This document shows, piece after piece, positions 1 to 62,745 of a DNA stretch of 64,000 bases (positions are counted from its first letter, which is position 1; each line of letters begins with the position of its first letter). Source of the DNA: Paracoccus liaowanqingii (GTDB lineage Bacteria; Pseudomonadota; Alphaproteobacteria; Rhodobacterales; Rhodobacteraceae); contig NZ_CP038439.1 in the NCBI RefSeq assembly GCF_004683865.2, positions 1,342,501-1,406,500 on the forward strand, in the 5' to 3' direction. The notes under the pieces are model-generated. The model saw nothing but the letters and a program-made list of their open reading frames with translations, had not been told where the DNA came from and searched no databases. The translations under genes were made by a program, and so were the position numbers.

Positions 1-1
1 C

Positions 2-750: not shown

Positions 751-778
751 GGACCCGGTCGCCGTCGCGGCCGGGTCC
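751..778 (+). promoter_or_regulatory. stem-loop between uehA and uehB
   Basis: Perfect 8-bp arms, GGACCCGG (751-758) and CCGGGTCC (771-778), enclose a 12-base loop in the 67-base gap after the binding-protein gene. There is no T tract, so it is not a classical terminator. Stem-loops at this place often protect the binding-protein mRNA or weaken readthrough, giving more binding protein than membrane subunits; that role is inference. Confidence 0.45.
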
Positions 779-803
779 TCCGACCAACCCATTCGAGGCA
801 CAG

Positions 804-1496
804 GTGGCCATGACGCGCGATGTCGATCCCGGTGGGCCTGGCCCCCACGATGCCCCCCCCAACACCACGACCGTCGATGCCGAGATCCTGGCCGCCGCCG
901 AGGCGACGCAGGCCCAGGACGACATCGATGATGGACTGTACGAATCGGGTCTGCCCGGGCCGCTTGGCCTGATCGACAAGGTGATCGCGCGGATGGAGGC
1001 CTTCGCGCTGGCCTTCGGGGTCCTGGCCATGGCCGCGATGACGGTCGCCAATGTCGTCGGGCGCTTCGTCTTCGGCCAGTCGCTCTATTTCGCGGAGGAA
1101 GTGAACCAGGGGCTGATCGTGCTGATCACCTTTGCCGGCATCTCCTATGCGGCGCGGCACGGGCGGCACATCCGCATGTCGGCCATCACCGACGCGCTGC
1201 CCTTCCGGGCGCGCAAGGCGATGATGGTGATGATCTCGACCGTGACGGCGGTGCTGCTGCTGGCCTTGTCCTGGTACGCGCTGTCCTATGTGATGACCAC
1301 CGCCGGGCGGGGCCGGGTGCTGCCCGCGCTGAGCATCCCGCAATGGTGGGTCCTGGTCTGGGTGCCGGCGGGCCTGTTCCTGACCGGGCTGCAATACGCG
1401 CTGACCGCGCTGAAGAACCTGACCGATCCCGAAATCTGGCTGTCGACCGCGACACGCGACGGCTATGACCTGCCGCACAAGGACAGCGCCCCATGA
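804..1496 (+). CDS. uehB: TRAP transporter small membrane subunit (DctQ family)
   Basis: DctQ-type small permease subunit of a tripartite sodium-driven transporter. After an unusually long hydrophilic N-terminus of about 50 residues there are four hydrophobic segments, with [11 protein letters not shown] and [26 protein letters not shown] typical of DctQ. GTG at 804 follows GAGG by 5 bases; ATG at 810 is an alternative start that removes two residues. The gene overlaps the next one by ATGA. It pairs with the large subunit at 1493 to import the solute bound by the preceding protein. The family is clear; the ectoine substrate comes from context. Confidence 0.85.
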
Positions 1497-21907: not shown

Positions 21908-22315
21908 ATGAACGACATGGAGATGGGCGGGATCGGGGACACCGAAGGACCTTTCGTGGCCGGTGCGCCGCCTGCGAAGGTGGCGGTCCGGATGCCGGAG
22001 ATTGCCGAGGGCGAGGACGAGATCGACGTCCTGCGCTGGCTGTTCTGGGACTACGTCAGGGATCTGCGGGGCCACCAGGCCGAGCTCGAGGCGCTGAAAA
22101 CGGCGGAACTTGACCCCGCCAAGCTGAAAAAGGCCATCGACACGGCGAAGACGGTCCGCGAGGCCGTGCAGCTGCTGATGGCGGAAAGGATCAAGGTTGA
22201 CAAACTTCGCAAGGATGTCGCCGGCGGGGTCGGAGGAGGCTGCCTCGACCTCGACGCCGCACGAGACGAGATCGGGCGCCGCCTGGCTTGCCTGCGCCGA
22301 GCCTCGGGAGGTTGA
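21908..22315 (+). CDS. GTA ORFg1, small terminase-like protein
   Basis: 135-residue acidic protein at the head of the GTA cluster, the position of ORFg1 (terminase small subunit, TerS) in Rhodobacter capsulatus GTA. It has a charged helical middle (LRWLFWDYVRDLRGHQAELEAL) and a C-terminal cysteine- and arginine-rich tail. In GTAs TerS helps the large terminase package random host DNA instead of a pac site. The 3' 119 bases overlap the terL gene in another frame. Similarity was judged from position, size and general character, so the identity is good but not certain. Confidence 0.75.
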   Translation: MNDMEMGGIGDTEGPFVAGAPPAKVAVRMPEIAEGEDEIDVLRWLFWDYVRDLRGHQAELEALKTAELDPAKLKKAIDTAKTVREAVQLLMAERIKVDKLRKDVAGGVGGGCLDLDAARDEIGRRLACLRRASGG

Positions 22316-23609
22316 GGAATTTCTGGGCGGTCTGTCCGAGAACGCGCTGACCAGCCTGCCATGGCTGTTCGAGTTCTGGGCCCTGCCGCATCAGCTGCCG
22401 CCCGAGGGCGACTGGAAGTCCTGGGTGATCATGGGGGGGCGCGGCGCGGGCAAGACCCGCGCCGGGTCCGAATGGGTGCGCCGCATCGTCGAGGGGCCGA
22501 CCCCCGACGCGCCGGGGCGGTGCCATCGCGTGGCGCTGGTGGGTGAGACCTTCGATCAGGTGCGCGAGGTGATGGTCTTTGGCGAAAGCGGGATCCTGGC
22601 CTGTTCGCCCCCCGACCGGCGTCCGGTCTGGGAGGCGGGGCGCAAGCGGCTGGTCTGGGCCAATCGCGCGACCGCCACGGTCTATTCCGCGCATGAGCCC
22701 GAGGCGCTGCGCGGCCCCCAGTTCGACGCGGCCTGGGTGGACGAGCTGGCCAAGTGGAAGAAGGCCGAGGATGTCTGGGACATGCTGCAGTTCGCGCTGC
22801 GTCTGGGCGCGCATCCCCAGCAGGTGGTGACGACGACGCCGCGCAATGTGGGGGTGCTGAAGCGCATCCTGGGCAATGCCAGCACGGTGGTGACCCATGC
22901 GCCGACCGACGCCAACCGCGCCTATCTGGCCGAGAGCTTTCTGGCCGAGGTGCAGAGCCGCTATGGCGGCACCCGGATGGGGCGGCAGGAGCTGGACGGC
23001 GTGCTGCTGGATGATGTGGAGGGTGCGCTGTGGACCACGGCGATGCTGGAGGCATCGCGCGTCGAGGCGGTGCCCAAGCTGGACCGGATCGTGGTGGCGG
23101 TCGACCCTTCGGTGACGGGCAGCCGGGCCAGCGACGAATGCGGGATCGTGGTGGCGGGCGTCGTCACGCAGGGCGAGCCCGCGGACTGGCGGGCCTATGT
23201 GCTGGAGGATGCCAGCGTGCGCGGCAGTCCGATGGATTGGGCCCGCGCCGCGATCGCGGCGATGGACCGGCACGGGGCCGAGAAGCTGGTGGCCGAGGTG
23301 AATCAGGGCGGCGATCTGGTCGAGAGCGTGGTGCGCCAGATCGACGCTTTGGTGCCGTTCAAGGCGCTGCGGGCGTCGCGCGGCAAGGGCCTGCGGGCCG
23401 AGCCGGTGGCGGCGCTGTACGAGCAGGGCCGCGTGAAGCATCTGCGCGGTGCCCTGGGCGCGCTGGAGGACCAGATGTGCCAGATGACGGTGCGCGGCTT
23501 CGAGGGGCGCGGCAGTCCGGACCGGCTGGATGCGCTGGTCTGGGCGATCCACGAGCTGATGATCGAGCCCGCGACGGGCTGGCGGCGACCGCAGATGCGG
23601 CGCCTGTGA
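22197..23609 (+). CDS. GTA ORFg2, large terminase (TerL)
   Basis: 470-residue DNA-packaging motor. The Walker A loop is VIMGGRGAGKTRAG, the Walker B region AAWVDELAKW, the coupling motif VTTTPRN, and the nuclease half begins with RIVVAVDPSV and ends with SPDRLDALVWAIHEL. TTG 22197 has a very good AAAGGA at 6 bases; the ATG at 22215 has AAGG directly attached and is the alternative. It packages headfuls of host DNA into the GTA head. A dispersed repeat follows before the portal gene. Confidence 0.9.
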   Translation: MTNFARMSPAGSEEAASTSTPHETRSGAAWLACAEPREVEEFLGGLSENALTSLPWLFEFWALPHQLPPEGDWKSWVIMGGRGAGKTRAGSEWVRRIVEGPTPDAPGRCHRVALVGETFDQVREVMVFGESGILACSPPDRRPVWEAGRKRLVWANRATATVYSAHEPEALRGPQFDAAWVDELAKWKKAEDVWDMLQFALRLGAHPQQVVTTTPRNVGVLKRILGNASTVVTHAPTDANRAYLAESFLAEVQSRYGGTRMGRQELDGVLLDDVEGALWTTAMLEASRVEAVPKLDRIVVAVDPSVTGSRASDECGIVVAGVVTQGEPADWRAYVLEDASVRGSPMDWARAAIAAMDRHGAEKLVAEVNQGGDLVESVVRQIDALVPFKALRASRGKGLRAEPVAALYEQGRVKHLRGALGALEDQMCQMTVRGFEGRGSPDRLDALVWAIHELMIEPATGWRRPQMRRL

Positions 23610-23667: not shown

Positions 23668-23720
23668 GGCGCCGTCCCGCCGGGGCGGGGCTGTCGCATG
23701 GCGCTGAGATGGAGGCGAGC

Positions 23721-24920
23721 ATGGTGTTTCGATTGTTTTCGCGGGAGGCGGCCGTGGTGCCGGAGGGGGCCGTGCCCGAGAGGAAGGCCAGTGCCGTGGG
23801 TCGCGTGGTGGCCTTTGCCAGCGGCCTGGGGCGCGGCGGGGCCGTCTGGTCGGCGCGCGACACGGGCAGCCTGACGCGGGGCGGCTTCGTGGGCAATCCG
23901 GTGGGCTTTCGCTGCGTGAAGCTGATCGCCGAGGCGGCGGCCGCCGTGCCGCTGGTCTGCGCGGACCGGGCCAGCCGCTATGAGGTGCATCCGGTGCTGG
24001 ACCTGCTGCGCCGGCCCAATCCGGGGCAGGGCCGGGCCGAGCTGTTCGAGGCGCTGTTCGGGCAGATCCTGCTGTCGGGCAACGGCTATCTGGAGGCGGT
24101 GGGGGCTGCGGCCTCTGGCCTGCCGGAGGAGCTGCATGTCCTGCGCTCGGACCGGATGAGCGTGGTGCCGGGGGCGGATGGCTGGCCCGTGGCCTATGAC
24201 TATGCCGTGGGGGGGCGCAAGCACCGCTTCGACATGACCGGCAGTCCCGATCCGGTCTGCCACGTGAAGGCCTTCCATCCGCAGGACGACCATTACGGGC
24301 TGTCGCCCATGCAGGCGGCCGCCGTGGCGCTGGATGTGCACAACAGCGCCAGTGCCTGGTCCAAGGCGCTGCTGGACAATGCAGCAAGGCCCTCTGGGGC
24401 GATCGTCTACAAGGGGGTGGACGGGCAGGGGGTGCTGAGCCCCGAGCAGTACGACCGGCTGGTGGGCGAAATCGAGATGAACCACCAGGGCGCGCGCAAT
24501 GCGGGGCGTCCGATGCTGCTGGAGGGGGGGCTGGACTGGCGCCCCATGGGGTTCAGCCCCGCCGACATGGAGTTTCACGAGACCAAGCTGTCGGCGGCAC
24601 GCGAGATCGCCCTGGCCTTCGGGGTGCCGCCGATGCTGATGGGCATCCCCGGCGATGCGACCTATGCCAATTACGCCGAGGCGCACCGGGCCTTCTATCG
24701 GCTGACGGTGCTGCCGCTGGTGGCGCGGGTCACGGCCTCGGTCGCGTGGTGGCTGTCGGAGCATCTGGGGGCGGAGGTCGAGCTGCGGCCTGATCCGGAC
24801 CAGATCCCCGCCCTGGCCGAGGAGCGCAACCAGCAATGGGCGCGGATCAGCGCGGCGGGGTTCCTGAGCGATGCCGAGAAGCGCGCCCTGCTGGGCCTGC
24901 CGCCCCTGGAGGGGGCGTGA
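23721..24920 (+). CDS. GTA ORFg3, portal protein (HK97 family)
   Basis: About 399 residues; forms the dodecameric ring at the head vertex through which DNA enters and leaves. Typical HK97-portal features are GNPVGFRCVKLIAEAAAAVPL, FGQILLSGNGYLE, and the C-terminal FGVPPMLMGIPGDATYANYAEA. ATG 23721 has GGAGG 5 bases upstream and is preferred over the ATG at 23709. The next small gene begins 3 bases after its stop. Confidence 0.9.
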   Translation: MVFRLFSREAAVVPEGAVPERKASAVGRVVAFASGLGRGGAVWSARDTGSLTRGGFVGNPVGFRCVKLIAEAAAAVPLVCADRASRYEVHPVLDLLRRPNPGQGRAELFEALFGQILLSGNGYLEAVGAAASGLPEELHVLRSDRMSVVPGADGWPVAYDYAVGGRKHRFDMTGSPDPVCHVKAFHPQDDHYGLSPMQAAAVALDVHNSASAWSKALLDNAARPSGAIVYKGVDGQGVLSPEQYDRLVGEIEMNHQGARNAGRPMLLEGGLDWRPMGFSPADMEFHETKLSAAREIALAFGVPPMLMGIPGDATYANYAEAHRAFYRLTVLPLVARVTASVAWWLSEHLGAEVELRPDPDQIPALAEERNQQWARISAAGFLSDAEKRALLGLPPLEGA

Positions 24921-25157: not shown

Positions 25158-25688
25158 ATGGTACCGGGGCTTGAGGTGAAATTCGCGGGCGGGGCGCCCG
25201 TCCTGACCGAGGGGCGGGTGATCGAGGGCTATGCCAGCCTGTTCGGGCTGACCGACCAGGGGGGCGACGCGGTCCTGCCGGGGGCGTTCTCGGCCTCGCT
25301 GGCGCGGCTGGGGGCCAAGGGGGACAAGGTGCGGATGCTGTGGCAGCACGATCCCACCCGCCCCATCGGCGTCTGGGACGAGGTCCGCGAGGACGCGACG
25401 GGCCTGTGGGTCAAGGGGCGCCTTTTGCCCGAGGTGGCGCAGGCCCGCGAGGCGGCGGCATTGATCGAGGCGGGGGCCATCGACGGGCTGTCCATCGGCT
25501 ATCGCACGATCCGCGCCGAGCGGGATGCCAAGGGCCGCCGCGCCCTGGCCGAGGTCGAGCTGTGGGAGGTGTCGCTGGTGACCTTCCCGATGCTGCCCGA
25601 GGCCAAGGTCGGCCGCAAGGAGGCCGAGGACCTGCGCGAGATGGCCGCGCTGTTCGCCCAAGCGGCCGAGGCCCTGCGGGGCGCATGA
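25158..25688 (+). CDS. GTA ORFg4, prohead protease (HK97 family)
   Basis: 176-residue serine protease that trims the major capsid protein during head maturation. The typical N-terminal EGYASLFGLTDQGGD is followed by the catalytic histidine in MLWQHDPTRPIG and the catalytic serine in IDGLSIGY, with a C-terminal EVELWEVSLVTFPMLPEA that is highly characteristic of the family. It lies 3 bases after ORFg3.5 and 128 bases before the capsid gene. No inactivating change is seen. Confidence 0.92.
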   Translation: MVPGLEVKFAGGAPVLTEGRVIEGYASLFGLTDQGGDAVLPGAFSASLARLGAKGDKVRMLWQHDPTRPIGVWDEVREDATGLWVKGRLLPEVAQAREAAALIEAGAIDGLSIGYRTIRAERDAKGRRALAEVELWEVSLVTFPMLPEAKVGRKEAEDLREMAALFAQAAEALRGA

Positions 25689-29287: not shown

Positions 29288-29550
29288 GCGGGGGCGCCGG
29301 ATCCGGGGGCGCGGGCCTGGACTGGGCCGGGCTGATGCGCGCCGGGCTGCGCGACCTGCGGCTGCATCCCGACCAGTTCTGGGCGCTGACGCCCGCCGAA
29401 CTGGGGCTGATGCTGGGGCTGGGCCCGGCGGGCCTGCCCCGCATGACGCGCGACCGGCTGGCCGGGCTGGCGGCCCGATATCCTGACGCGTCCGGACCTT
29501 CGGGCGCGCGAACGGATGAACCGAGGGGACAGGACGATGGCGATGGGTGA
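29284..29550 (+). CDS. GTA ORFg10.1, small tail assembly protein
   Basis: 88 residues of the rcc01693/TIGR02216 phage-like family, with MRAGLRDLRLHPDQFWALTPAELGLMLG as the conserved core. With ORFg10 it occupies the position where lambda-like phages encode the two tail-assembly chaperones by frameshifting; here two separate overlapping genes (ATGA) replace the frameshift. The 3' end overlaps ORFg11 slightly. Confidence 0.8.
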   Translation: MSGGAGSGGAGLDWAGLMRAGLRDLRLHPDQFWALTPAELGLMLGLGPAGLPRMTRDRLAGLAARYPDASGPSGARTDEPRGQDDGDG

Positions 29551-30181
29551 GGGGGCCGGGTCCATGCTGGACCGGCTGGACGACGATCTGGGCGGCACCG
29601 CCCGCGAGACGCGCGAGTTCCAGGCCGAATTGGGGCGGCTGCGCCAGTCGATGACGCTGACCTCGCGCGAGGTGGGCACGCTGAGCTCGGGTCTGGAACG
29701 GGGGCTGGGGCGGGCGATCGACGGGTTGGTGCTGGATGGCGGCAACCTATCGGATGCGCTGACAACCATCGGCCGGTCGCTGGCCGACACGGTCTATGGC
29801 ATCGCGATGAAGCCGGTCGAGGGGGCCTTGGCCGGGACCTTCGCGGGCGGTCTGGGCAGCCTGCTGGGCACTAGCCTGACGCCCTTCGCCAAGGGCGGTG
29901 CCTTTGCGCAAGGGCGCCAGATCGGGGGCATCGTCTCGGCCCCCACGGCCTTTCCGATGCGGGGCGGGCAGGGCCTGATGGGCGAGGCCGGTCCCGAGGC
30001 GATCCTGCCGCTGCGGCGCGGCCCGGATGGCAGGCTGGGGGTCGCCGCCGCCGGAGGGGGGGGGTCGGTGAACGTCACCTTCAACATCCAGACCCCCGAC
30101 GTGGCGGGCTTCCGGCGCAGCCAGGGGCAGATCGCCGCCCAGATGTCGCGCGTGCTGGCGCGCGGCGAGCGCAACAGCTGA
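29537..30181 (+). CDS. GTA ORFg11, short tape-measure protein
   Basis: 214 residues (or 221 from ATG 29516). An amphipathic N-terminal half (TREFQAELGRLRQSMTLTSREV) and a C-terminal glycine-rich part with FAKGGAFAQGR and GLMGEAGPEAILPLRRGPDG, a signature found at the end of many tape-measure proteins. It is very short for this role, which agrees with the short tail of GTA particles, since tape length sets tail length. ATG 29537 has GAGGGGAC upstream at a suitable distance. Confidence 0.85.
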   Translation: MAMGEGAGSMLDRLDDDLGGTARETREFQAELGRLRQSMTLTSREVGTLSSGLERGLGRAIDGLVLDGGNLSDALTTIGRSLADTVYGIAMKPVEGALAGTFAGGLGSLLGTSLTPFAKGGAFAQGRQIGGIVSAPTAFPMRGGQGLMGEAGPEAILPLRRGPDGRLGVAAAGGGGSVNVTFNIQTPDVAGFRRSQGQIAAQMSRVLARGERNS

Positions 30182-30194: not shown

Positions 30195-30827
30195 ATGGCC
30201 TTTCACGATGTCAGATTTCCCGCCAACCTGTCCTTTGGCGCCATCGGCGGCCCCGAGCGGCGGACCGAGATCGTCACCCTGGCCAGCGGCTTCGAGGAGC
30301 GCAACACGCCCTGGAGCCATGCCCTGCGCCGCTTCGATGCGGGGATGGGTCTGCGGTCGCTAGACGATCTGTCGGCCGTCATCGCCTTCTTCGAGGCGCG
30401 CGCCGGGCAGCTGCACGCCTTTCGCTGGAAGGACTGGTCGGATCACAAGAGCTGCCTGCCCTCGGCCGCGCCCGAGTTCACCGACCAGGTGATCGCGGTG
30501 GGCGACGGGCAGCGGCGCAGCTTTGCCCTGAGCAAGGCCTATCGGTCGGGGGCCACGGTCTATCACCGCCCCATCACCAAGCCGGTCGCGGGCTCGGTCC
30601 GGGCGGGGATCGGCGGCAGCGAGGTCTTTGTCGAGTTGAACTACGCCGTCGATCATGGCGCCGGGCTGATCCTGTTCCACGAGCCCCCGGGCGTCGGGGC
30701 CGAGATCACCGCGGGCTTCGAGTTCGACGTGCCGGTGCGCTTCGACACGGACCGGATCGCGGTGTCGGTGGGGTCGTTCCAGGCGGGGCAGGTGCCCAGC
30801 ATCCCGGTGGTGGAGGTGCGGGCATGA
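30195..30827 (+). CDS. GTA ORFg12, distal tail protein (DUF2460)
   Basis: 210 residues, DUF2460 family: the start FHDVRFPANLSFGAIGGPERRTEIV, the middle FRWKDWSDHKS and the end DVPVRFDTDRIAVSV are diagnostic. It forms the ring joining the tail tube to the baseplate hub. Its stop overlaps ORFg13 by ATGA. AAAGGGGG precedes the ATG at a good distance. Confidence 0.9.
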   Translation: MAFHDVRFPANLSFGAIGGPERRTEIVTLASGFEERNTPWSHALRRFDAGMGLRSLDDLSAVIAFFEARAGQLHAFRWKDWSDHKSCLPSAAPEFTDQVIAVGDGQRRSFALSKAYRSGATVYHRPITKPVAGSVRAGIGGSEVFVELNYAVDHGAGLILFHEPPGVGAEITAGFEFDVPVRFDTDRIAVSVGSFQAGQVPSIPVVEVRA

Positions 30828-31654
30828 GCGTCACGACGATGGCCCGCGCTTGGTCGCTGCGGCGCGGTGACGGGCTGGTGCTGGGCTTTACCGATCATGA
30901 CGGTCCGCTGGCCTTCGACGGCATCGCGTTCCGCCCCGACCGGGGGCTGACGGCCCGGGCGCTGGTGCAGGGCACCGGGCTGTCGGTCGACAATTCCGAG
31001 GCCACCGGCGCCCTCAGCGACGACGCGATCACCGAGCGCGATCTGATGGCGGGCCGGTGGGATGCGGCCGAGCTGCGCCTGTGGGAGGTCGACTGGACCG
31101 ATGTCGCGCAGCGGCGGCTGGTCTTTCGCGGCTCCCTGGGCGAGGTCTCGCGCAGCAACGGCGCCTTCCGGGCCGAGCTGCGCGGGCTGTCGGACCTGCT
31201 GAATGCGCCGCAAGGCCGGGTCTATCACCCGCGCTGTTCGGCGCGCTTGGGCGACGGGGCCTGCCGGGTCGATCTGGGGGCATCCGGCCTGTCGGTGGAC
31301 CGGGCGGTCGAGGGGCTGGAAGAGGGGCGCGTCTTCCGGTTCGCGGCATTCCCCGCCTTCGATGCCAACTGGTTCGAGCATGGCCGGCTGGAGGTGCGGA
31401 CGGGCGCCGCCGAGGGGTTGCAGGGCGCGATCAAGAACGACAGCGCCCTGCCCGGCGGCGGGCGGGTGATCGAGCTGTGGTCGGCGCTTGGTCTGCTGCC
31501 CGCGCCCGGCGATCAGCTGCGGCTGACGGCGGGATGCGACAAGGCGGCAACCAGCTGCCGCTTGAAGTTCGGGAATTTCGCCAATTTCCGCGGCTTTCCG
31601 CATCTGCCGCCCGAGGACTGGCTGCTGGCCCCGCAGGTGAACCGCCATGGATGA
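30824..31654 (+). CDS. GTA ORFg13, tail hub protein (DUF2163)
   Basis: 276 residues, DUF2163 family: ARAWSLRRGDGLVLGFTDHD at the start and NFANFRGFPHLPPED near the end. Four cysteines (138, 147, 238, 245) are spaced as two pairs; they could hold a metal or iron-sulfur centre as in lambda tail-tip protein gpL, which is inference. It forms the baseplate hub. The last 8 bases overlap the ORFg14 start. Confidence 0.88.
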   Translation: MSVTTMARAWSLRRGDGLVLGFTDHDGPLAFDGIAFRPDRGLTARALVQGTGLSVDNSEATGALSDDAITERDLMAGRWDAAELRLWEVDWTDVAQRRLVFRGSLGEVSRSNGAFRAELRGLSDLLNAPQGRVYHPRCSARLGDGACRVDLGASGLSVDRAVEGLEEGRVFRFAAFPAFDANWFEHGRLEVRTGAAEGLQGAIKNDSALPGGGRVIELWSALGLLPAPGDQLRLTAGCDKAATSCRLKFGNFANFRGFPHLPPEDWLLAPQVNRHG

Positions 31655-32075
31655 CCCGGTCGTCGTGGCGGCGCGGGGCTGGCTGGGCACGCCCTATGTG
31701 CATCAGGCCAGCGCGAAGGGCAGCGGTGCCGATTGCCTGGGCCTCATTCGCGGCATCTGGCGCGAGATCCGCGGGGCCGAGCCCGAGACGCCCCCCGCCT
31801 ATACCGCGGACTGGGCGGAATGCGGCGGGACCGAGGTGCTGCTGGGCGCCGCGATGCGCCACCTGGCGCCCGTTCCCGCCGATGCCGCATGGGCGCCGGG
31901 CCAGGTGCTGCTGTTCCGCATGCGTCCCGGGGCCATCGCCAAGCATCTGGGCATCCTGTCGCAGGACGGGGACGCGGCACGGTTCATCCATGCCTATACC
32001 TCTCACGGGGTCATCGACAGTCCGCTGACCCCGCCCTGGCGATCCCGGATCGTGGCACGGTTTCGGTTTCCCTGA
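31647..32075 (+). CDS. GTA ORFg14, NlpC/P60-type cell-wall peptidase
   Basis: 142-residue papain-like peptidase that probably cuts peptidoglycan during DNA delivery. The catalytic cysteine is in GSGADCLGLIRGIW, the histidine in IAKHLGILSQ, and the end is SPLTPPWRSRIVARFRF. The arrangement WLGTPYVHQASAKG before the cysteine is characteristic of phage NlpC proteins. The gene overlaps ORFg13 by 8 bases and lies 24 bases before the giant tail-tip gene. Confidence 0.9.
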   Translation: MDDPVVVAARGWLGTPYVHQASAKGSGADCLGLIRGIWREIRGAEPETPPAYTADWAECGGTEVLLGAAMRHLAPVPADAAWAPGQVLLFRMRPGAIAKHLGILSQDGDAARFIHAYTSHGVIDSPLTPPWRSRIVARFRFP

Positions 32076-32099: not shown

Positions 32100-35000
32100 A
32101 TGGCCACGATCGTCCTGTCTGCCGTGGGGGCCTCGCTTGGGGCGGGGTTCGGCGGCGCCGTCCTGGGCCTGTCGGGCGCCGTGCTGGGACGTGCGGCGGG
32201 TGCCTTGGTCGGGCGGGCCATCGACCAGCGCCTGCTGGGCGGCGGCGCCCGGGCGGTCGAGACCGGGCGCATCGACCGGCTGCGCATCCAGACCGCCGGC
32301 GAGGGCATGGCCGTGCCGCGCATCTGGGGACAGATGCGGGTGCCGGGACACGTGATCTGGGCCTCGCCCCTGGAGGAGATCGCGCGCAGCGAGGATGCGG
32401 GCGGCGGCAAGGGCGCGCCGCGCACGCAGGTCACCCAGATCAGCTATCGGCTGTCGCTGGCTTTGGCCCTGGCCGAGGGGCCGGTCCTGTCGGTCGGCAG
32501 GATCTGGGCGGATGGCGAGGAGATCGCGCAGCGGGATCTGAACCTGCGCATCTATCTGGGCGGCGAGGCGCAGATGCCCGACCCGGTCATCGCCGCGCTG
32601 GAGGGGGACATGGCGCCCAGCTATCGCGGCATCGCCTATGTGGTGCTGGAGAACCTGGCGCTGGAGCGATGGGGCAACCGCCTGCCGCAGCTGAGCTTCG
32701 AGGTCACCTGCCCGGCGCGCGACGGAAGCGGGCTGGTGCGCGACGTGCGGGCCGTGGCGCTGATCCCCGGCACGGGCGAATATGCGCTGGCCACGACCCC
32801 GGTGACCGAGGGCGGCGATCTGGGCGAAAGCCGCAGCTTCAACACCAACACGCCGATGGGGGGCACGGACTTCTCGGCCTCGCTGGACGTGCTGGGGCGC
32901 GAGCTGCCCGGGGTCGGGTCGGTCGCGATGGTCGTGTCCTGGTTCGGCAGCGACCTTCGGATCGGCCAGTGCGAGGTCCGCCCCAAGGTCGAGTTCCGCG
33001 AGGTCGACGGCGCCGAGATGCCGTGGCGTGCGGGCGGCATCACCCGGGCCGAGGCGGCCGAGGTCGCGCGGCAGGACGGGCGTCCGATCTATGGCGGCAC
33101 GCCCTCGGACCGCTCGGTGATCGAGGGGCTGCGGGCGCTCGGCGCATCGGGGCGGCGGGCGATCTTCTATCCCTTCATCCTGATGGAGCAGATGGCGGGC
33201 AACGGGCTGCCCGATCCCTATGGGGCCGAGGAGCAACCGGCCTTGCCGTGGCGTGGGCGCATCACCTCCAGCGTGGCGCCGGGGCGGCCGGGGACGACGG
33301 ACGGGACCGCGGCGGCGGCGGCGCAGGTCGCGGCGTTCTTCGGAACCGCCCAGCCCGGCCATTTCACGCGCAGCGGCGACCGGGTCAGCTATTCGGGGCC
33401 GGATACGTGGTCCTATCGCCGGTTCATCCTGCACTATGCCCATGTCTGCGCGGCGGCGGGGGGGTGCGACGCCTTCCTGATCGGGTCCGAGATGGTCGCG
33501 ATGACCCGGATCCGGGGGCCGCAGAACAGCTATCCGGCGGTGGCGGCGCTGCGCCAGCTGGCCGCCGACGTGCGCGCGATCCTGGGGCCGGGCGTCAGGA
33601 TCGGCTATGCCGCCGACTGGTCGGAGTATTTCGGGCATCACCCGGGCGCGGGCGAGCTGTTCTTCCACCTCGATCCGCTCTGGGCGGACCCCAACATCGA
33701 CTTCATCGGCATCGACAACTACATGCCGCTGTCGGATTGGCGCGACGGCGATGACCATCTGGACGCATCCTGGGGCCGGATCGACAATATCGACTATCTG
33801 CGCGCCAATGTGGCGGGGGGCGAGGGGTACGACTGGTACTATGCCAGCGAGGCCGACCGCGACGCGCAGGTCCGCACGCCCATCACCGACGGCACCTATG
33901 ACGAGGCCTGGGTCTGGCGCTACAAGGATCTGGCCGGCTGGTGGCAGAACCTGCATTACGACCGCCCCGGCGGGGTGCGGCAGGCGCAGGCGACGGCCTG
34001 GGTGCCCGGGTCCAAGCCCATCTGGTTCACCGAGTTCGGCTGCGCGGCGCTGGACAAGGCGACCAACCAGCCCAACAAGTTCCTGGACGCGATGTCGTCG
34101 GAAAGCATGCTGCCCTATTACTCGAACGGCACCCGGAACGACGGGCTGCAGGCGGCCTATGTCGCGGCGGTGACGGCGCATTGGCGCGATCCGGACAACA
34201 ATCCGGTCAATGCGACGGGCCTGCGGATGCTGGATCTGGACCGGGCGCATGTCTGGTGCTGGGACGCGCGGCCATATCCGGGCTTTCCGGGGCGCGAGGA
34301 TCTGTGGTCGGACGGCCCGGCCTGGGATCGCGGCCATTGGCTGAACGGGCGCGCGGGCGCGGTGACGCTGCGCGCGGTGGTGGCCGACATCTGCCGCGCG
34401 GCGGGGCTTGAGGGTGTCGATGTCTCGGGCCTGTCCGGCGTGGTGCGCGGCTATGCGCTGCAGGGGTCCGAATCGGCGCGGGCGGCGCTGCAGCCCCTGA
34501 TGCTGGCCCATGGCTTCGACGCGGTCGAGCGGGACGGCACGTTGCGCTTTGTCATGCGCGACGGGTTGGCCCGGGCCGAGATCGGGCCCGAGGATCTGGC
34601 GCTGGCCGACGAGGTCACCGGCTTCGAGACGGTCCGCCAGATCGAGGCGGCGCAGCCGGGCCAGCTGCGGCTGAGCCACGTCGCGGCGGGCGGCGATTAC
34701 GGGGTGGCCACCGCCGAGGCGAGCCTGGCCGATGCCGACCGCCGTGCGGTGTCCGAGAGCGAGTTCGCGATGGTGCTGACGCGCGCCGAGGGCCGCGCGA
34801 TCGCCGATCGCTGGATCGCCGAGGCCGAGCTGGCGCGGGACACGGCGCGCTTCGCCCTGCCGCCCTCGCGCGCTGATCTGGGGCCGGGGGATGTGATCAC
34901 CAGCCGGATGCCCGGGCAGGACAGCCGCCGCTGGCGCATCGACCGGGTCGAGCGGGCGGGCGCCATCACCATCGACGCGGTGCGGGTCGATCCCGGCCTT

Positions 35001-35981
35001 TATACCCCGCGCCTGAGCTTTCAGGAGCAGGGCGGCCTGCGCCGCTATGCGCCGCCGATGCCGGTCTTCCCGGTGATGCTGGACCTGCCGCTGCTGCGCG
35101 GCGACGAGGTGCCGCACGCCCCCTGGCTGGCGGTAGCGGCCCATCCCTGGCCGGGGTCGGTTGCGGCCTATGGTTCGGCCGAGGCCGAGGGCGGGTTCGA
35201 GCTGAACCTGATCCTGCAGCGACGGGCGCTGATCGGGCGGACGCTGACGCCGCTGGCCCCTGCGCGGCCGGGGGTGATCGACCGGGGCGCGCCCCTGCGG
35301 CTGCGGCTGATCGGCGATCCGCTGCGGTCGGTGACGGAACGCGCGCTGCTGTCCGGGGCCAATGCCCTGGCCATCGGCGATGGCAGCGTGGACGGGTGGG
35401 AGGTGATGCAGTTCGCCCGCGCCGATCTGGTGGCCCCCAATCTCTGGGAGATCAGCCACCGCCTGCGCGGGCAGGCGGGCACGGACGGGGTAATGCCGCA
35501 GGTCTGGCCCGCGGGCAGCCTGGTCGTGCTGCTGGACGGGGCACCGAAGCAGCTGGACCTGCCGCCCTCGGCGCGGGGGCGGGAACGGTTCTGGCGCGTC
35601 GGTCCCGCGCTGCGGGCGCCCGACGATGCCAGCTATCGCGACCTGACGACCGAGGCCTAGGGGATCGGGCTGCGGCCTTATGCGCCCTGCCATCTGCGGA
35701 TGGAGGGGCGCCGGGTCACCTGGGTGCGGCGCAGCCGGATCGAGGGGGATGGCTGGGACGGTCCCGACATCCCCCTGGGCGAGGAGAGCGAACGCTATCT
35801 GCTGCGGCTGATGCGTGAGGGCGTGGTGCTGGCCGAGGTCCAGACCTCGGACCCCGACTGGAGCGTGCCAGAAGCCCTCTGGGCGTCGCTGCCCCCCGGT
35901 CCGGTCACGGTCGCCGTGGCCCAACTGTCGCAGACCTTCGGGCGCGGCCCCTTTGCAAGGAGAGATTTCGATGTCCGGTGA
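32100..35981 (+). CDS. GTA ORFg15, giant tail-tip protein (megatron), interrupted by an in-frame TAG
   Basis: The frame is open for 1186 codons from ATG 32100 (AAAGGAGG upstream), stops at TAG 35658-35660, and continues in the same frame for 106 more codons to TGA 35979. The last part (GLRPYAPCHLR, IPLGEESERYLLRL, QTFGRGPF) is the normal C-terminus of this family, and the total of about 1293 matches the usual full length. Domains: an N-terminal membrane-like segment (residues 5-40), a tail-tip region, a TIM-barrel-like glycosidase-type domain (near residues 420-730, with LIGSEMVAMTRIR and WFTEFGCAALDK), and a phage-tail domain. It would penetrate the recipient envelope. Either a nonsense mutation, a readthrough site, or a sequencing error. 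Confidence 0.88.
35658..35660 (+). other. in-frame amber codon within ORFg15
   Basis: The codons are GAG GCC TAG GGG ATC GGG, giving EA*GIG. A single base change from TTG (Leu) or similar would explain it. The downstream 106 codons keep frame and family-specific sequence, so any inactivation must be recent, or the codon is read through at some level. Confidence 0.9.
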
Positions 35982-36681
35982 AACGATGCGCCTGCAGATG
36001 CCGCTGCTGGCCCCCGCCCAGGCCCAGAAGCATGTCACCGTCAACGAGGCCCTGATGCGGCTGGACGGCATGGTGAACCTGGTGCTGCAGAGCGTCTCGG
36101 TGGCGGTCCCGCCCGAGGCGGTGCTGGACGGCCAGTGCTGGGGCGTGCCGATTTCGGGCCAGGGCGCGTGGTCCGGGCAGGGGGGCCGGATCGCGGTGGG
36201 GTCGAATGGCGGATGGGTCTTCCTGCCGCCCGCGCCGGGCATGCGGGCTTTCGTGGCCGATCACGGGCTGCAGGCGATCCATGACGGCACGGACTGGGCC
36301 GTGGGTGCGCTGAGCCTGGGCGCGGGCGGATCGGGGCTGATGGCGGGCATGGCCGAGGGCGAGGCGACCCTGGGCGGCGGGACCAGCGTGGCGACGGATG
36401 TTTTCATCCCGGCGGGCGCGCTGGTGATCGGTGCGGTGGGCCGGGTGGCCAGCGGCCTGACCGGCACGCTGACCGGCTGGCGGCTTGGCACCACGGGGGC
36501 GCTGAACCGCTTCGGTCAGGGCCTGGGCAAGCAGGAGGGGTCCTGGGCACGAGGCCTGCTGGGCAGCCCCATGGCCTATTACCAGACCGAGCCGCTGATC
36601 GTGACCGCCGAAGGCGGGACGATGACCGGCGGGCGCATCCGCCTGGCGGTGCACTGGCTGGAGATGCGGCTGCCGACCTAG
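35971..36681 (+). CDS. DUF2793 tail-fibre-like protein
   Basis: 236 residues opening with the DUF2793 hallmark (LQMPLLAPAQAQKHVTVNEALMRLDGMV). The domain is attached to GTA fibres in Rhodobacter (rcc00171-like) and to phage tail fibres. The C-terminal half (WRLGTTGALNRFGQG, MAYYQTEPLIVTAEGG) looks like a receptor-binding or trimerisation part. ATG 35971 has AAGGAG 9 bases upstream and overlaps the end of the ORFg15 frame by 11 bases, suggesting coupling to the complete ORFg15 rather than to the TAG-shortened form. In R. capsulatus the fibre gene is elsewhere, so its place here is a variation. Confidence 0.8.
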   Translation: MSGETMRLQMPLLAPAQAQKHVTVNEALMRLDGMVNLVLQSVSVAVPPEAVLDGQCWGVPISGQGAWSGQGGRIAVGSNGGWVFLPPAPGMRAFVADHGLQAIHDGTDWAVGALSLGAGGSGLMAGMAEGEATLGGGTSVATDVFIPAGALVIGAVGRVASGLTGTLTGWRLGTTGALNRFGQGLGKQEGSWARGLLGSPMAYYQTEPLIVTAEGGTMTGGRIRLAVHWLEMRLPT

Positions 36682-36769
36682 GGCCGCGGATCGTTTTGGG
36701 CCCGCCCGTCTTTAACCGCATCGTCATGTGGTTTATGTAGGGGAACCAAAGGATCGGGTGGGCTTCAGG

Positions 36770-37597
36770 ATGAACATGCAACATGTCGACAAGACCCCGC
36801 TGGCGTTGGATCGCGACGCGATCTGGTCGCAGTTGCGCGACGAGGCCTCTGCCGCCGTCGCGGGCGAGCCGCTGCTGGGCGCGCTGATCCATGCGGGCCT
36901 GCTGCACCATCAGAGCCTGGAGGCGGCGCTGGCCTATCGCTTCTCGCTGAAGCTGGCCTCGGGCGAGATGAGCGAGCAGATCCTGCGCGAGATCGCCGAC
37001 CAGGCCTATGCCACCACCGCGCAGATGGGCGATGCGGCGCGGGCCGATCTGATGGCGGTCTATGACCGCGATCCGGCGACGCACCGCCTGTTGCAGCCGG
37101 TGCTGTTCTTCAAGGGCTTCCAGGCGCTGCAGGCGTACCGGATGGCGCATTGGCTGTGGCAGCAGGGGCGCCGCGACATGGCCTATTTCGTGCAGATGCG
37201 CTGCTCGGAATGCTTCGGCGTGGACATCCACCCGGCGGCGAAGATCGGCACCGGGGTGATGATCGACCATGCCCATTCCATCGTCATCGGCGAGACGGCG
37301 ACCGTCGGCAACGACGTGTCGATGCTGCATTCGGTGACGCTTGGCGGCACGGGCAAGGAGGATGGCGACCGCCATCCCAAAATCGGCGACGGGGTGCTGA
37401 TCGGCGCGGGCGCGAAGGTGCTGGGCAACATCCATGTCGGCCATCATTCGCGGATCGCGGCGGGATCGGTCGTGCTGCACGACGTGCCGGCCTGCAAGAC
37501 CGTGGCGGGCGTGCCCGCGCGCGTGATCGGGGATGCGGGCTGCCTAGAGCCGTCCTACAGCATGAACCAGCTGCTGGGGATCGAGGATTACACCTAG
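36770..37597 (+). CDS. cysE: serine O-acetyltransferase
   Basis: About 275 residues; makes O-acetylserine for cysteine synthesis. The N-terminal helical domain is followed by left-handed beta-helix hexapeptide repeats, with [27 protein letters not shown] as the active-site region and [28 protein letters not shown] after it. ATG 36770 is taken; GTG 36728 and ATG 36776 are other candidates because no clear ribosome site decides. As I recall, cysE just after the GTA cluster is recurrent in Rhodobacterales, so the position is not unusual. Confidence 0.93.
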
Positions 37598-58235: not shown

Positions 58236-58795
58236 AGCGTGACCTGCGTCCCGTCGCGCGTCAGGGTCAGCGTCAGGGGCGTGCCCGCGCCGGTCAGCAT
58301 CAGGCGGCGGTCGGAGAGGTCCAGGCAGTCCAGCGGCAGGGTCAGGCGGGCCAGCCGCATCCCGTGATCGGGCAGGCGGTCGGACGGGTGGGGCCCCGTG
58401 CCCCAATCGATCAGCATGGGCTGCGCCCCGTCGCGCGGCATCTGGCCCGCGCGGGGCAGGGTGATGCGCCAGGACAGATCGCCCCGCGTGGCGGTGGCGA
58501 TGTCGGTCCCCGGCGGGGCGGTCAGCGGATCGGCCCGCGCCACCCAGCCCGCCACGCAGGGCGGGCCGTCGAACCCGTCCAGGCCGAACCAGCGCGGGCG
58601 GTCGGGGCTGTCCGGGTCCGGCGCGATCAGTTCCAGATATTCGCCGGGACCAAGCGACAGCAGCATGTTGTGGGTGCCGAGGCCCGGATGCCGCCCGCCG
58701 GGCTGCAGGTCCAGCCCAAGGCGCGCCCGCAGCCAGTCCGCGCCCTCGGACAGGCTGCGGGCGGCGATGGCCACATGATCGAAGCTCAGGCTCAC
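58232..58795 (-). CDS. glyoxalase-like (VOC family) protein
   Basis: 187 residues of the Glyoxalase_3/VOC-like fold: [56 protein letters not shown] covers the first module with a H-x-E type metal pattern (His7, Glu near 54). The second half is degenerate. Function unknown. Start GTG 58795 overlaps the trpA stop (GTGA), so it is translated with trpA and the GNAT gene. Confidence 0.8.
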
Positions 58796-59589
58796 CCGCG
58801 ATGGGCCCCCGCGGCCAGGTCGCGGACGAAGCTCAGGATCTCGGGGACAGGGCGGCCCTCGCCGATCAGCTTGACGATGGCGCTGCCCACCACGCAGCCA
58901 TCCGCGACCGAGGCGATGGCCTGCGCGGCCTCGGGGGTCGAGATGCCGAAGCCCACCACGACCGGCAGTCCGGCGGCGGCGCGGATGCGCGTCACCTCTG
59001 GGGCGACATCGGCGGCATTCGCGGCGGCGGCGCCGGTGATGCCGGTGACGCTGACGTAATAGACGAAGCCGGTGGTGTTCTTCACCACGGCGGGCAGGCG
59101 GCGGTCATCGGTGGTGGGCGTCGCCAGCCGGATGAAGTTCAGCCCGGCGGCGGTGGCGGGCACGCACAGCTCGGCATCTTCCTCGGGGGGCAGGTCGACG
59201 ACGATCAGCCCGTCGACGCCCGCCTCGACCGCGTCGGTCAGGAACTGGGTGACCCCGCCCGGGCGCGCATAGATCGGGTTGTAATACCCCATCAGCACGA
59301 CGGGGGTGGTCGTGTCCTCGCGCCGGAACGCGCGCAGCATCTCCAGCGTGCGGCTGACGCTGCCGCCCTGCGCCAGCGCCCGCTGGCCCGCCGCCTGGAT
59401 GGTCGATCCGTCCGCCATCGGGTCGGTGAAGGGCATGCCCAGCTCGATGATGTCGACGCCCGCCTCGGGCAGGCCGCGCATGATCTGCAGCGCCGTGGCG
59501 TCATCGGGGTCCGACGCCATCATGTAGGCCACGAAGGCCTTGCGCCCCTGCGCCTTCAGCTCTGCAAACCTGTCGTCGATTCTGGTCAT
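58792..59589 (-). CDS. trpA: tryptophan synthase alpha subunit
   Basis: 265-residue TIM-barrel enzyme. Motifs: the catalytic glutamate in [22 protein letters not shown], the phosphate-binding PVVVGFGIS, the catalytic aspartate region in [18 protein letters not shown], and [12 protein letters not shown]. It splits indole-3-glycerol phosphate and passes indole to TrpB. It is separated from trpF (21 kb) and no trpB is in the window. ATG 59589 is used. Confidence 0.95.
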
Positions 59590-59718
59590 GTCCGTCCCCG
59601 TCTTCTTCGGTCCCAGCACTAGCCCGCATGGGCGTTGGGTGCAATCGGGCCACGGCTGGACTTGGCCGCGCAGGACGCGTAACAGCGGCACGGAAATCGT
59701 TTGGGAAAGGGTGCTGTC

Positions 59719-60816
59719 ATGGGCTTTCGCATGGGGATCGTCGGGCTGCCGAATGTCGGCAAGTCCACGCTGTTCAACGCACTGACACGGACCGCCGCCG
59801 CGCAGGCCGCGAACTTCCCCTTCTGCACGATCGAGCCGAATGTGGGCGAGGTCGCCGTCCCCGATGCGCGGCTGGACACGCTGGCGCAGATCGCGGGCAG
59901 TAAGCAGATCATTCCGACGCGGATCACCTTCGTCGACATCGCCGGTCTGGTGAAGGGCGCCAGCAAGGGCGAGGGCTTGGGCAACCAGTTCCTGGCCACG
60001 ATCCGCGAGGTCGATGCCATCGCCCATGTGCTGCGCTGCTTCGAGGATGGCGACATCACCCATGTCGAGGGCCGCGTCGATGCCCTGGCCGACGCGGAGG
60101 TGATCGAGACCGAGCTGATGATCTCGGACATGGAATCGATCGAGCGGCGGCTGGCCAATCTCGCGCGCAAGCTGAAGGGCGGCGACAAGGATGCCGCCGA
60201 CCAGCAGCGGCTGCTGCAGCAGGCGCTGGCCGCGCTGAACGAGGGCCGCCCCGCCCGCACCATCGCGGTGGCCGAGGACGACCGCCGCGCATGGGAGATG
60301 CTGCAGCTGCTGACCGCGAAACCGGTCCTCTTCGTGTGCAACGTGGCCGAGGACGAGGCCGCGCACGGCAACGCCATGTCCGAGAAGGTCCGCGAGATGG
60401 CCGAGGCGCAGGGCGCGGGCCATGTGGTGATCTCGGCCCGGATCGAGGAAGAGATCAGCCAGCTGGACGCCGAGGAGGCGCAGATGTTCCTGGGCGAGAT
60501 GGGGCTGGAGGAGCCCGGCCTGGATCGCCTGATCCGCGCGGGATACCAGCTGTTGGGCCTGCAGACCTATTTCACCGTGGGGCCGAAAGAGGCCCGCGCC
60601 TGGACCATCACCAAGGGCACGCTGGCCCCGCAGGCGGCAGGCGTGATCCATGGCGATTTCGAGAAGGGCTTCATCCGGTCGGAAACCATCGCCTATGACG
60701 ATTACGTCGCGGGCAAGGGCGAGGCCGGCGCCCGCGAGGCCGGCAAGCTGCGCGTCGAGGGCAAGACCTACGAGGTCAAGGACGGCGACGTGCTGCACTT
60801 CCTGTTCAGCGGCTGA
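59719..60816 (+). CDS. ychF: YchF/Obg-family redox-regulated ATPase
   Basis: 365 residues, the normal length of YchF. The P-loop is [19 protein letters not shown]2/G3 include [26 protein letters not shown], the altered G4 site is FVCNVAEDE (specificity for ATP), and the C-terminal TGS domain is [18 protein letters not shown], ending in [18 protein letters not shown]. It binds ribosomes and is tied to oxidative stress response and the peptidyl-tRNA hydrolase system. The in-frame TTG at 59701 is not needed; ATG 59719 has GGGAAAGGG upstream. A terminator follows. Confidence 0.96.
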
Positions 60817-61035: not shown

Positions 61036-62745
61036 TCAGTTCCCGACGACCGTGCAGGGGCGCGAGCGGCTGCGCATCCGTTCGCAGGCCAGTTCCGCAT
61101 GGCCCTTGGACAGGTTGCCGAATCGCGGCTCGAAGCCCCGGTTCGTGTTCGCCACATGGCGACTGGCGGACCCGAAGAGGTTGCCGTCCTGCAGGGCCAG
61201 GCCCAGCAGCATCCGGTCGGCCTCGACCTGCGAGGTGGTCAGGCCAAGCGAGACGCCCCAGTGGCGGCCGCTGTCGGTCGGGCGTCGCACGACCTCCAGC
61301 GCCTCGGGACCGCCCAGATCGCCTTCGCCCATCGCCGCCAGAATCACCGTCTCGGACCGGGGGCGGGGGGCGTTGGAGCTGTCCAGCGACAGGCTGCCCG
61401 GGGCTGCCTGCGGCTGCGGGGCGGCAGGCTCGGGCGCTGCGGCGACCTGCTGGGGCTCGGCCACGGCGGCCGTGCTGGCACTGCGGCGGGGCGAGGGTGC
61501 GGGGCGGTTCGATGCGGCCAACACCGGGGCCGCAAGGCTGGCCGAGGCCGCCGGGGCCGCATCGGAGGCCACGGCGGTCGCGATCGCCTCCTCGATGGCG
61601 GCGGGGCTGGCCGGCGCGCTGCCGGGCCGGGCGCGGGGACGCGAACTGGCGGCCAGCGCAATGCCCGGGGCGGTGGGGGCAGGGGCCGTGGCGCCTGCAC
61701 GGCGCAGCGCCTCGGTCAGGTCCACCGCCGACGGCACGGGGGCTGCGGGCGCGGCCGCGACCAGCGCCGCCGCGGCGGCCGGACGGACCGAGGGCGGCGG
61801 CGAGGCCTGCAGCACCATGCGCTGCGGCTCGGGCTGGGTCGCGGCGGGGCTGGGTGCAACCTGGGCGCGACGGGTCGTCGCCTGGACCAGCATGCGCGGG
61901 CGCTGCGGCTTGACCTCGCGCACGCGGTCGGGAACACGGGGGAAGCTGTTGTCCAGCAGTTCCGCCATCACCTGGTTGCGCTGCGCGGTCGAGGTGCCGC
62001 CGAAGACCGTGGCGATCAGCCGCTTGTTGCCGCGCTGCGCCGAGGCGGTCAGGTTGAAGCCCGCCGCCCGGGTATAGCCGGTCTTGATCCCGTCCGCGCC
62101 GGGATAGTCGTCCAGGAAGCGACGGTTCGTCGCGGTCACCTGCGCGATGCCCGCATCCGCCGTCCGGCGCGAGAACAGGTTGTAATACTGGGGAAAATCG
62201 TAGAACAGGTGGCGGCCCAGGATGCTCATGTCATGGGCGGTCGAGAAATGCCCCTCCTGCGTCAGCCCGTGGGCGTTGCGGAACTGGGTGTTGTTCATGC
62301 CGAGGGCGCGCGCCATCTGCGTCATCTGCTGGGTGAAGGCCTGCTCGGATCCCGCCAGCCCCTCGCCCAGGGCGGTGGCGGCATCGTTGCCCGACTTGAT
62401 CGCCGCGGCGCGGATCAGATAGCGCAATTCGATCTGCTGGCCCGCGCGCAGGCCCAGCTTCGAAGGCGGCTCGTTGGCGGCCTTGCTGGAGATGGTGAAG
62501 CGCGAGTCCAGCCGCACCTGCCCCCGCTCGATCGCCGAGAAGGCCATGTAGAGCGTCATCATCTTGGTGAGCGACGCGGGATGCAGCCGGGTGTCGGCGT
62601 TCTGGCGATAGATGGGCTGGCCCGTCCGGGCATCCATCACATAGGCCGCGAAGGGCGCTGCGGCTGCCGGAAGCGACAGCAGCAGGGTAGCCAGCACGGC
62701 CTGACGCAGCAGCCGGAAGACTTGGGGAAATCTGTTCACTGTCAC
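61036..62745 (-). CDS. D-alanyl-D-alanine carboxypeptidase (DacA/DacF family) with a SPOR-like tail
   Basis: 569 residues. A signal-anchor or signal peptide (about residues 10-30) leads to an S11 penicillin-binding domain with SLTKMM (SxxK), KSGNDA (SxN) and GIKTGYTRAAGFN (KTG). A long alanine/proline-rich flexible linker (about 285-470) follows, and the C-terminus is SPOR-like (HWGVSLGLTTSQVEADRMLL to ACERMRSRSRPCTVVG), which binds denuded glycan at the septum. It removes the terminal D-alanine from peptidoglycan stems. Start is GTG 62745, with GAGG upstream; GTG 62739 is an alternative. About twice the usual length of DacA because of the linker. Confidence 0.88.
   Translation of the reverse strand: MTVNRFPQVFRLLRQAVLATLLLSLPAAAAPFAAYVMDARTGQPIYRQNADTRLHPASLTKMMTLYMAFSAIERGQVRLDSRFTISSKAANEPPSKLGLRAGQQIELRYLIRAAAIKSGNDAATALGEGLAGSEQAFTQQMTQMARALGMNNTQFRNAHGLTQEGHFSTAHDMSILGRHLFYDFPQYYNLFSRRTADAGIAQVTATNRRFLDDYPGADGIKTGYTRAAGFNLTASAQRGNKRLIATVFGGTSTAQRNQVMAELLDNSFPRVPDRVREVKPQRPRMLVQATTRRAQVAPSPAATQPEPQRMVLQASPPPSVRPAAAAALVAAAPAAPVPSAVDLTEALRRAGATAPAPTAPGIALAASSRPRARPGSAPASPAAIEEAIATAVASDAAPAASASLAAPVLAASNRPAPSPRRSASTAAVAEPQQVAAAPEPAAPQPQAAPGSLSLDSSNAPRPRSETVILAAMGEGDLGGPEALEVVRRPTDSGRHWGVSLGLTTSQVEADRMLLGLALQDGNLFGSASRHVANTNRGFEPRFGNLSKGHAELACERMRSRSRPCTVVGN

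What the first reader, a model, noticed from the sequence alone, without database searches (positions are those of the whole stretch)
32100..35981. In-frame amber codon 106 codons before the natural end of the GTA megatron gene
The giant tail-tip gene is open for 1186 codons, hits TAG at 35658-35660, then continues in the same frame for 106 codons with the normal C-terminal sequence of the family (PYAPCHLR, IPLGEESERYL, QTFGRGPF). No frameshift is present and the fibre gene start still overlaps the full-length end by 11 bases. Either a very recent nonsense mutation has disabled an otherwise intact GTA, or the codon is read through to give two forms of tail tip, or it is a sequence error. The remaining GTA genes look intact, so this codon could decide whether particles can deliver DNA.
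Basis: partly seen in the sequence, partly recalled or inferred. Interest (0 to 1): 0.8.

Follow-up and report, generated by a model that had tools for sequence, protein, structure and literature searches.

The report
Recent stop in GTA tail-tip gene
A Paracoccus bacterium carries one apparently fresh stop mutation that cuts the last domain off the tail-tip protein of its DNA-carrying particle, while close relatives have the gene whole, so this looks like an ordinary early step of gene decay and not a new mechanism.

Summary
The GTA megatron gene (32100-35981) is open for 1186 codons, has TAG at 35658-35660, then 106 more codons in frame. NCBIfam GTA_megatron fits the two pieces at 1-1186 and 1191-1297 of 1299. 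The site is a sense codon in 10 of 10 equal-length relatives, and a 98% identical Paracoccus liaowanqingii protein runs through it to the normal end: the stop is young. Readthrough lacks support: no tRNA with anticodon CTA was found, RF1 is present, TAG ends the next two genes. Among 46 coding-like genes compared with P. gahaiensis only this one has a real internal stop. The lost piece is predicted to fold alone as a fibronectin-III-like domain, in the fibre-binding region. The likely result, untested, is poor fibre attachment and little DNA delivery. Breaks of this gene recur in the genus: 13 of 117 judged copies (hand count). GTA pseudogenisation is already described. A base error cannot be excluded without reads.

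The parts
32100..35660 (+). GTA megatron (baseplate multidomain protein, RcGTA g15/Rcc01698 type), truncated reading frame of 1186 aa ending in TAG
   Evidence: NCBIfam NF048004 1663 bits over 1-1186 of 1299; Pfam GTA_TIM, Phage-tail_3, Rcc01698_C; PDB 6TBA/6TEH chain residues 1-1186
35658..35660 (+). In-frame TAG; a sense codon in 10 of 10 equal-length relatives
35661..35981 (+). Former C-terminus beyond the stop, 106 codons plus TGA: predicted FnIII-like terminal module of the fibre-binding domain
   Evidence: NF048004 1191-1297; 6TBA residues 1195-1299; model pLDDT 86.5; fold matches
35971..36681 (+). DUF2793 tail-fibre gene, start overlapping the former megatron end by 11 bases; ends in TAG
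   Evidence: Pfam PF10983; PDB 8GTC chain S, 9 copies, E 4e-30
36728..37597 (+). cysE-like serine acetyltransferase, right-hand neighbour of the GTA cluster; ends in TAG
   Evidence: Pfam SATase_N
31647..32075 (+). GTA NlpC/P60 peptidase, intact
   Evidence: TIGR02219, same length as in P. gahaiensis
30824..31654 (+). GTA hub protein, intact
   Evidence: TIGR02218
30195..30827 (+). GTA distal tail protein, intact
   Evidence: TIGR02217 1-209 of 210
29516..30181 (+). GTA tape measure protein, intact
   Evidence: NF058675
28560..28973 (+). GTA major tail protein, intact
   Evidence: TIGR02126
25158..26980 (+). GTA prohead protease (25158-25688) and major capsid protein (ends 26980; start not settled), no internal stop seen
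   Evidence: TIGR01543, TIGR01554
22197..24920 (+). GTA large terminase (22197-23609) and portal (23709-24920), intact
   Evidence: TIGR01630 below its cut-off, TIGR01537

Best explanation
A single recent nonsense mutation in a Paracoccus lineage close to P. liaowanqingii ends the GTA megatron early, so that the site and the 106 residues after it are lost. It falls just before a module predicted to fold by itself (FnIII-like), the last part of the fibre-binding domain. Inferred: the trimeric baseplate core can probably still form, because the central, hub-binding and TIM-barrel parts remain, but the tail fibres dock badly or not at all, so particles deliver little or no DNA. The gene is at the first stage of decay; no regulated function of the stop is needed. 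Shown: the site, its youth relative to relatives, isolation of the lesion, no amber suppressor found. Inferred: the effect on particles.
For: Sense codon in 10 of 10 equal-length relatives (12 genes looked at, 2 one codon shorter and not scored), one mutational step away in P. gahaiensis. A P. liaowanqingii protein, 1115/1138 identical to the first piece, continues to the normal end with 102 of 106 residues identical; of those 4 differences 2 are derived in that protein, none is shown to be derived in the window, 2 are unresolved. Window-lineage changes in the C piece: 3 synonymous, 0 non-synonymous with two outgroups; 2 and 1 with eight. Only real internal stop among 46 coding-like syntenic genes, 16,767 codons. 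One megatron locus in the genome, so no spare copy was found. The lost piece corresponds to residues 1195-1299 of RcGTA Rcc01698, inside the published fibre-binding domain 985-1304 (PMC7296036, passages); it is predicted to fold alone. Tail fibres are reported as essential for gene transfer (PMC7296036; PMC10218006; PMC13420450, a preprint; passages only).
Against: Reads were not available, so a base error is not excluded. Which two of the three regions of the fibre-binding domain bind fibres is not said in the passages read (PMC10276861), so the lost module could be dispensable. The C piece has a higher dN/dS than the rest (0.316 against 0.121 with P. gahaiensis), though the four pairs of intact relatives computed show the same direction.
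Confidence: 0.82

Rival explanations
1. Sequencing or assembly error: the real chromosome has a sense codon and the megatron is whole.
For: A single substitution is all that is needed, and the closest named relative differs from TAG by one step; the rest of the cluster is intact.
Against: The assembly is in few contigs (4.93 Mb in 11, completeness 100). No other real internal stop or frameshift among 46 coding-like genes, 16,767 codons, compared with P. gahaiensis, so the assembly is not error-rich here. Similar single stops exist in other assemblies (G117, G024, G091), which could themselves hold errors.
Confidence: 0.12
2. The TAG is read through or suppressed, giving a short and a long tail tip in a set ratio.
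For: The 106 codons stay open and conserved. A stable hairpin follows the stop (-46.3 kcal/mol, z -2.05; z -1.54 in a second run, where none of 20 windows tiled along the gene reached -46 kcal/mol and 1 of 20 had z of -2 or less). 7 of 9 in-frame stops located in megatron genes of the genus are TAG.
Against: No anticodon CTA among the 44 RF00005 hits typed; an exact motif for such tRNAs gave 0 matches, while the same motif for GTA found tRNA-Tyr. RF1 is present. TAG ends the next two genes. The stop is in none of 10 equal-length relatives. The hairpin predates the stop: 3 of 10 relatives without a stop have a lower z than the window in the same run (L053 -3.50, L057 -2.14, L056 -1.74) and P. 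gahaiensis has -1.37. A TAG share of 0.66-0.70 is expected from codon use, P 0.37-0.46.
Confidence: 0.03
3. Same mutation, but the truncated megatron still works: the terminal FnIII-like module is dispensable or only tunes fibre attachment, so the stop is a near-neutral shortening (overlaps with the best explanation as to the mutation).
For: The stop lies after a complete Rcc01698_C domain (1043-1143), and the lost piece is predicted to be an autonomous fold. G091 has its stop only about 30 codons from the end.
Against: The module has 14 invariant columns in 63 aligned sequences (62 of the 79 usable loci plus the window) and is present in 79 of 80 loci. Apart from the broken copies, the judged Paracoccus copies run to the usual end (104 of 117, hand count).
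Confidence: 0.1
4. The C-terminal 93 residues are made as a separate polypeptide by restart at ATG 35700 and join the truncated protein in trans.
For: An in-frame ATG lies 13 codons after the stop.
Against: No Shine-Dalgarno-like stretch before it by eye; the Met is also in 5 of 10 aligned relatives without a stop, P. gahaiensis among them, so it is no adaptation; the restart would drop the first conserved residues of the module.
Confidence: 0.02

Closest known systems
RcGTA megatron Rcc01698 (g15) of Rhodobacter capsulatus, PDB 6TBA/6TEH
   Same: Colinear over both pieces (window 1-1179 with 1-1186; C piece 1-100 with 1195-1299); the same tail genes precede it
   Different: The window gene carries TAG before the last module; here a DUF2793 fibre gene follows directly, whereas the R. 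capsulatus fibre is Rcc00171, from an ectopic locus, and a hypothetical gene g16 follows g15
Roseophage vB_DshS-R4C baseplate (megatron 016 and fibre 017), PDB 8GTC
   Same: Fibre of 230 aa matching the window's fibre gene (chain S, E 4e-30); C piece matches chain M 1336-1441
   Different: R4C is a phage whose megatron has an extra carbohydrate-binding domain; no stop
P. gahaiensis and P. liaowanqingii GTA megatron genes (intact alleles)
   Same: 94.5% identical over 1186 residues and 98% over 1138 residues; both run to the natural end
   Different: Sense codon at the site
Pseudogenised GTA clusters of alphaproteobacteria
   Same: Pseudogenisation and loss of GTAs in several lineages is already described (PMC10883770, passages)
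   Different: Here a single lesion was found in an otherwise whole cluster, caught early

Membership tests
RcGTA-type gene transfer agent cluster | Conserved head-to-tail gene order terminase, portal, protease, capsid, tail genes, hub, peptidase, megatron | tested here: met
RcGTA-type gene transfer agent cluster | Chromosomal, same place in related species, not a newly integrated phage | tested here: met
   Synteny with P. gahaiensis on both sides over the window; terminase matched in 119 of 125 and portal in 122 of 125 genomes of the genus, weak and partial hits included
RcGTA-type gene transfer agent cluster | Makes particles that move host DNA | not testable with these tools
   Needs culture and a transfer assay
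RcGTA-type gene transfer agent cluster | Genes outside the main cluster (regulator, head spikes, lysis genes) present and intact | not tested
   No search was made for them
GTA_megatron NF048004 (equivalog) | Score over 800 bits and full-length match | tested here: inconclusive
   Score met (1663 bits for the truncated piece; 1764 with the stop passed over by the tool); full length not met as read by the ribosome, since positions 1191-1299 lie beyond the stop
Programmed stop-codon readthrough gene | Stop conserved in relatives | tested here: not met
   0 of 10 equal-length relatives have it
Programmed stop-codon readthrough gene | Suppressor tRNA, or a downstream element absent from stop-less relatives | tested here: not met
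Recent pseudogene (nonsense allele) | Intact orthologue in close relatives and no further lesions | tested here: met
Recent pseudogene (nonsense allele) | Relaxed selection after the lesion | tested here: inconclusive
   Too few changes: C piece 3 syn / 0 nonsyn or 2 / 1 by outgroup choice

The most novel reading that the evidence does not exclude
The lineage keeps making and releasing particles but no longer delivers DNA: a natural delivery-dead GTA in which packaging and release stay under selection for another reason (for example DNA or debris as shared goods in biofilm), and the same step has been taken independently by other Paracoccus lineages in which one megatron stop is the only lesion seen in the genes tested (G117, G024).
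Probability: 0.05. Interest if true: 0.6.

Novelty: new member of a known kind. Interest (0 to 1): 0.22.

Why it matters
It is a clean natural truncation: one stop at a domain border removes only the terminal FnIII-like module of a GTA tail tip, and a near-identical intact allele exists in the same or a sister species. That pair would let one ask what the module does and whether GTA loss can begin with delivery. As a genomic event it is ordinary, since GTA decay is known and recurs in this genus.

Tried and rejected
Amber excess as a sign of recoding: 7 of 9 in-frame stops located in megatron genes of the genus are TAG (G000 plus eight; one of the nine lies in a frameshifted gene; a further stop in G023, a copy in many pieces seen, was left out; the list was capped). 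Codon use predicts 0.66-0.70 TAG, P 0.37-0.46. Rejected.

Hairpin after the stop as a readthrough signal: strong for this gene, but present in relatives without a stop. Rejected.

Megatron as a preferred place of GTA inactivation: single in-frame stops in the GTA copy were seen in 4 megatrons (G000, G091, G117, G024) and 1 terminase (G038), none in the portal (listed orthologues); with 1293 against 873 codons that is no excess (P 0.33), and cases were collected by looking at the megatron first. Dropped.

The first synteny control flagged 18 of 45 ORFs. Twelve of the 18 were checked by codon-position GC: apart from the megatron the flagged frames do not look coding, or, in one ORF (window 58795-60371), only the part after the break does. 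It was replaced by a set filtered on that pattern (69 coding-like ORFs, 46 with a match of 70% or more in the window, 4 flagged: the megatron, two cut by the window edges, and the distal tail ORF, whose stop lies in an upstream extension of the P. gahaiensis ORF).

A 309-residue model of the whole fibre-binding region was poor (pLDDT 49) and was not used. Viral contig search for the site: 0 matches. Plasmid search to name the host: best identity band 90-95% and little of the query covered, so no name. The RF00005 list missed tRNA-Tyr and showed no Ile or Ala-TGC tRNA, so it is incomplete; hence the motif search, which is exact and could miss an odd tRNA.

Full report
What is there. The window holds an RcGTA-type cluster on the + strand: terminase 22197-23609, portal 23709-24920, protease 25158-25688, capsid to 26980, tail genes, distal tail 30195-30827, hub 30824-31654, peptidase 31647-32075, megatron from 32100, a DUF2793 fibre gene 35971-36681, then cysE 36728-37597. 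The megatron frame ends at TAG 35658-35660 after 1186 codons and goes on for 106 codons to TGA 35979-35981. The two pieces match the same NCBIfam model and the same solved chain (6TBA/6TEH) at 1-1186 and 1195-1299. In the genome (4.93 Mb, 11 contigs) no second megatron was found.

Relatives. The C piece is found in 123 of 125 genomes of the genus, own genome included. Of 12 relatives looked at, 10 have the same length, and in 10 of these 10 the site is a sense codon; in P. gahaiensis, the nearest named genome, it is one mutational step from TAG. A protein named Paracoccus liaowanqingii (P0001, partial at its N end) is 1115/1138 identical to the first piece and 102/106 to the second, without interruption. 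No tool names the window's own species; kinship to P. liaowanqingii is inferred from this identity. In 79 of 80 loci from genome contigs the C-terminal piece is present and open; the 80th is cut at 15 residues, near its contig end.

Age and isolation. Polarised by P. gahaiensis, the 23 differences to P0001 in the first piece are 17 derived in P0001, 3 in the window, 3 unresolved; in the C piece 2, 0 and 2. Codon changes on the window branch in the C piece are 3 synonymous and 0 non-synonymous (two outgroups) or 2 and 1 (eight outgroups). dN/dS of the C piece is higher than of the rest (0.316 against 0.121 with P. gahaiensis), but so it is in the four pairs of intact relatives computed (for example 0.429 against 0.176 for P. 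gahaiensis and P. nototheniae; 0.194 against 0.160 for P. nototheniae and L054). These numbers are small and show only that no decay after the stop is visible. Against P. gahaiensis, 46 coding-like genes with 16,767 codons were compared; the megatron is the only one with a real internal stop. An earlier unfiltered pass flagged 18 of 45 ORFs; 12 of these were checked and, the megatron apart, did not look coding where flagged.

Readthrough. None of the 44 tRNAs listed reads TAG. The list lacked tRNA-Tyr, so a motif search was made: 0 matches for anticodon CTA, and the same motif with GTA recovered tRNA-Tyr. RF1 is present. The fibre gene and cysE end in TAG. The hairpin after the stop is strong for this gene but exists in relatives without a stop. 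TAG makes up 7 of 9 in-frame stops located in megatrons of the genus (and the window: four GTA copies with one TAG, G121 with TGA in a frameshifted gene, and four phage-type copies with three TAG and one TAA), which is what codon use predicts.

What is lost. The 106 residues are modelled with fair confidence as one beta-sandwich domain (pLDDT 86.5, pTM 0.79). Most of the best fold matches are proteins with fibronectin-III domains (partly known to me by recall), with lambda tail-tip and tail-fibre chains (8IYK, 8XCI, 9E7M) and megatron 8GTC among the first 50; no match reaches E 0.001. Published work (passages only) places residues 985-1304 of Rcc01698 in the fibre-binding domain (PMC7296036) and describes three regions in the R4C homologue, two of them binding fibres (PMC10276861). 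Fibres are called essential for transfer (PMC7296036). So the stop should weaken or abolish fibre docking. Whether the last module is one of the two binding regions I could not settle.

Frequency. By hand count: of 123 genomes with the C piece (best copy each), 6 were set aside (5 cut by contig ends: G085, G086, G103, G118, G055; and G104, whose GTA copy was not listed), 104 have an open frame of 1280 aa or more to the end, and 13 are broken: G000, G117, G024, G091 (single stop; G091 also has its terminase in two pieces), G121, G023, G093, G096 (several pieces), G062, G010, G073, G061, G098 (large deletions). Four of the 13 are genomes of 79-84% completeness (G023, G091, G093, G096), and some lesions may be errors. 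G106 and G123 had no C-piece match. In G117 and G024 none of the other tested GTA genes was broken. Further decay outside the megatron: portal in two frames in G075 and a terminase stop in G038, a rearranged cluster in G051.

Prior work. Pseudogenisation and loss of GTAs in several alphaproteobacterial lineages, and cheater models for it, are discussed in PMC10883770 (passages). In the listings (partly cut: 15 of 21, 10 of 24 and 8 of 21 shown in the last three) I saw no title or abstract opening on this allele or on Paracoccus megatron stops. The cheater idea fits poorly here, since a broken tail tip would not spare the producer from lysis (inference).

Verdict. A true, recent nonsense allele, or less likely a base error; ordinary decay of a known kind, useful as a natural domain deletion. 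GTA genes outside the main cluster were not tested.

Noticed in passing
L208-L210 and L216-L222: A graded series of GTA decay in Paracoccus: single megatron stop with the tested rest intact, several lesions, and clusters deleted down to a 3' remnant (megatron end plus fibre gene).
   Followed up: partly
L058 (G075) portal; L224 (G038) terminase; G051:C13: Other GTA lesions: portal in two frames, terminase with a stop near residue 180, and an inverted portal fragment between terminase pieces and the megatron.
   Followed up: partly
G031:C18:17054-21016 and many G genomes: Many Paracoccus genomes carry further phage-type megatron genes of about 1324-1335 aa besides the GTA copy; in the window's genome none was found.
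   Followed up: no
G000:C8:30577-30738 and G000:C7:73385-73457: Smaller contigs of the genome carry tRNA-Met, one with tRNA-Leu(taa) right beside it.
   Followed up: no
window 61440-61527: ARAGORN calls tRNA-Ala(ggc) here, but the Rfam tRNA search of the genome does not list it; probably a false positive, though that list also missed tRNA-Tyr.
   Followed up: no
P0001 against window: The P. liaowanqingii megatron has 17 derived residues against 3 in the window (first piece), so the intact allele sits on the faster branch.
   Followed up: no
window 35971-36681: The gene after the megatron is a fibre here, whereas R. capsulatus has a hypothetical gene g16 there and its fibre at an ectopic locus; g16 was not compared with the window.
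   Followed up: partly
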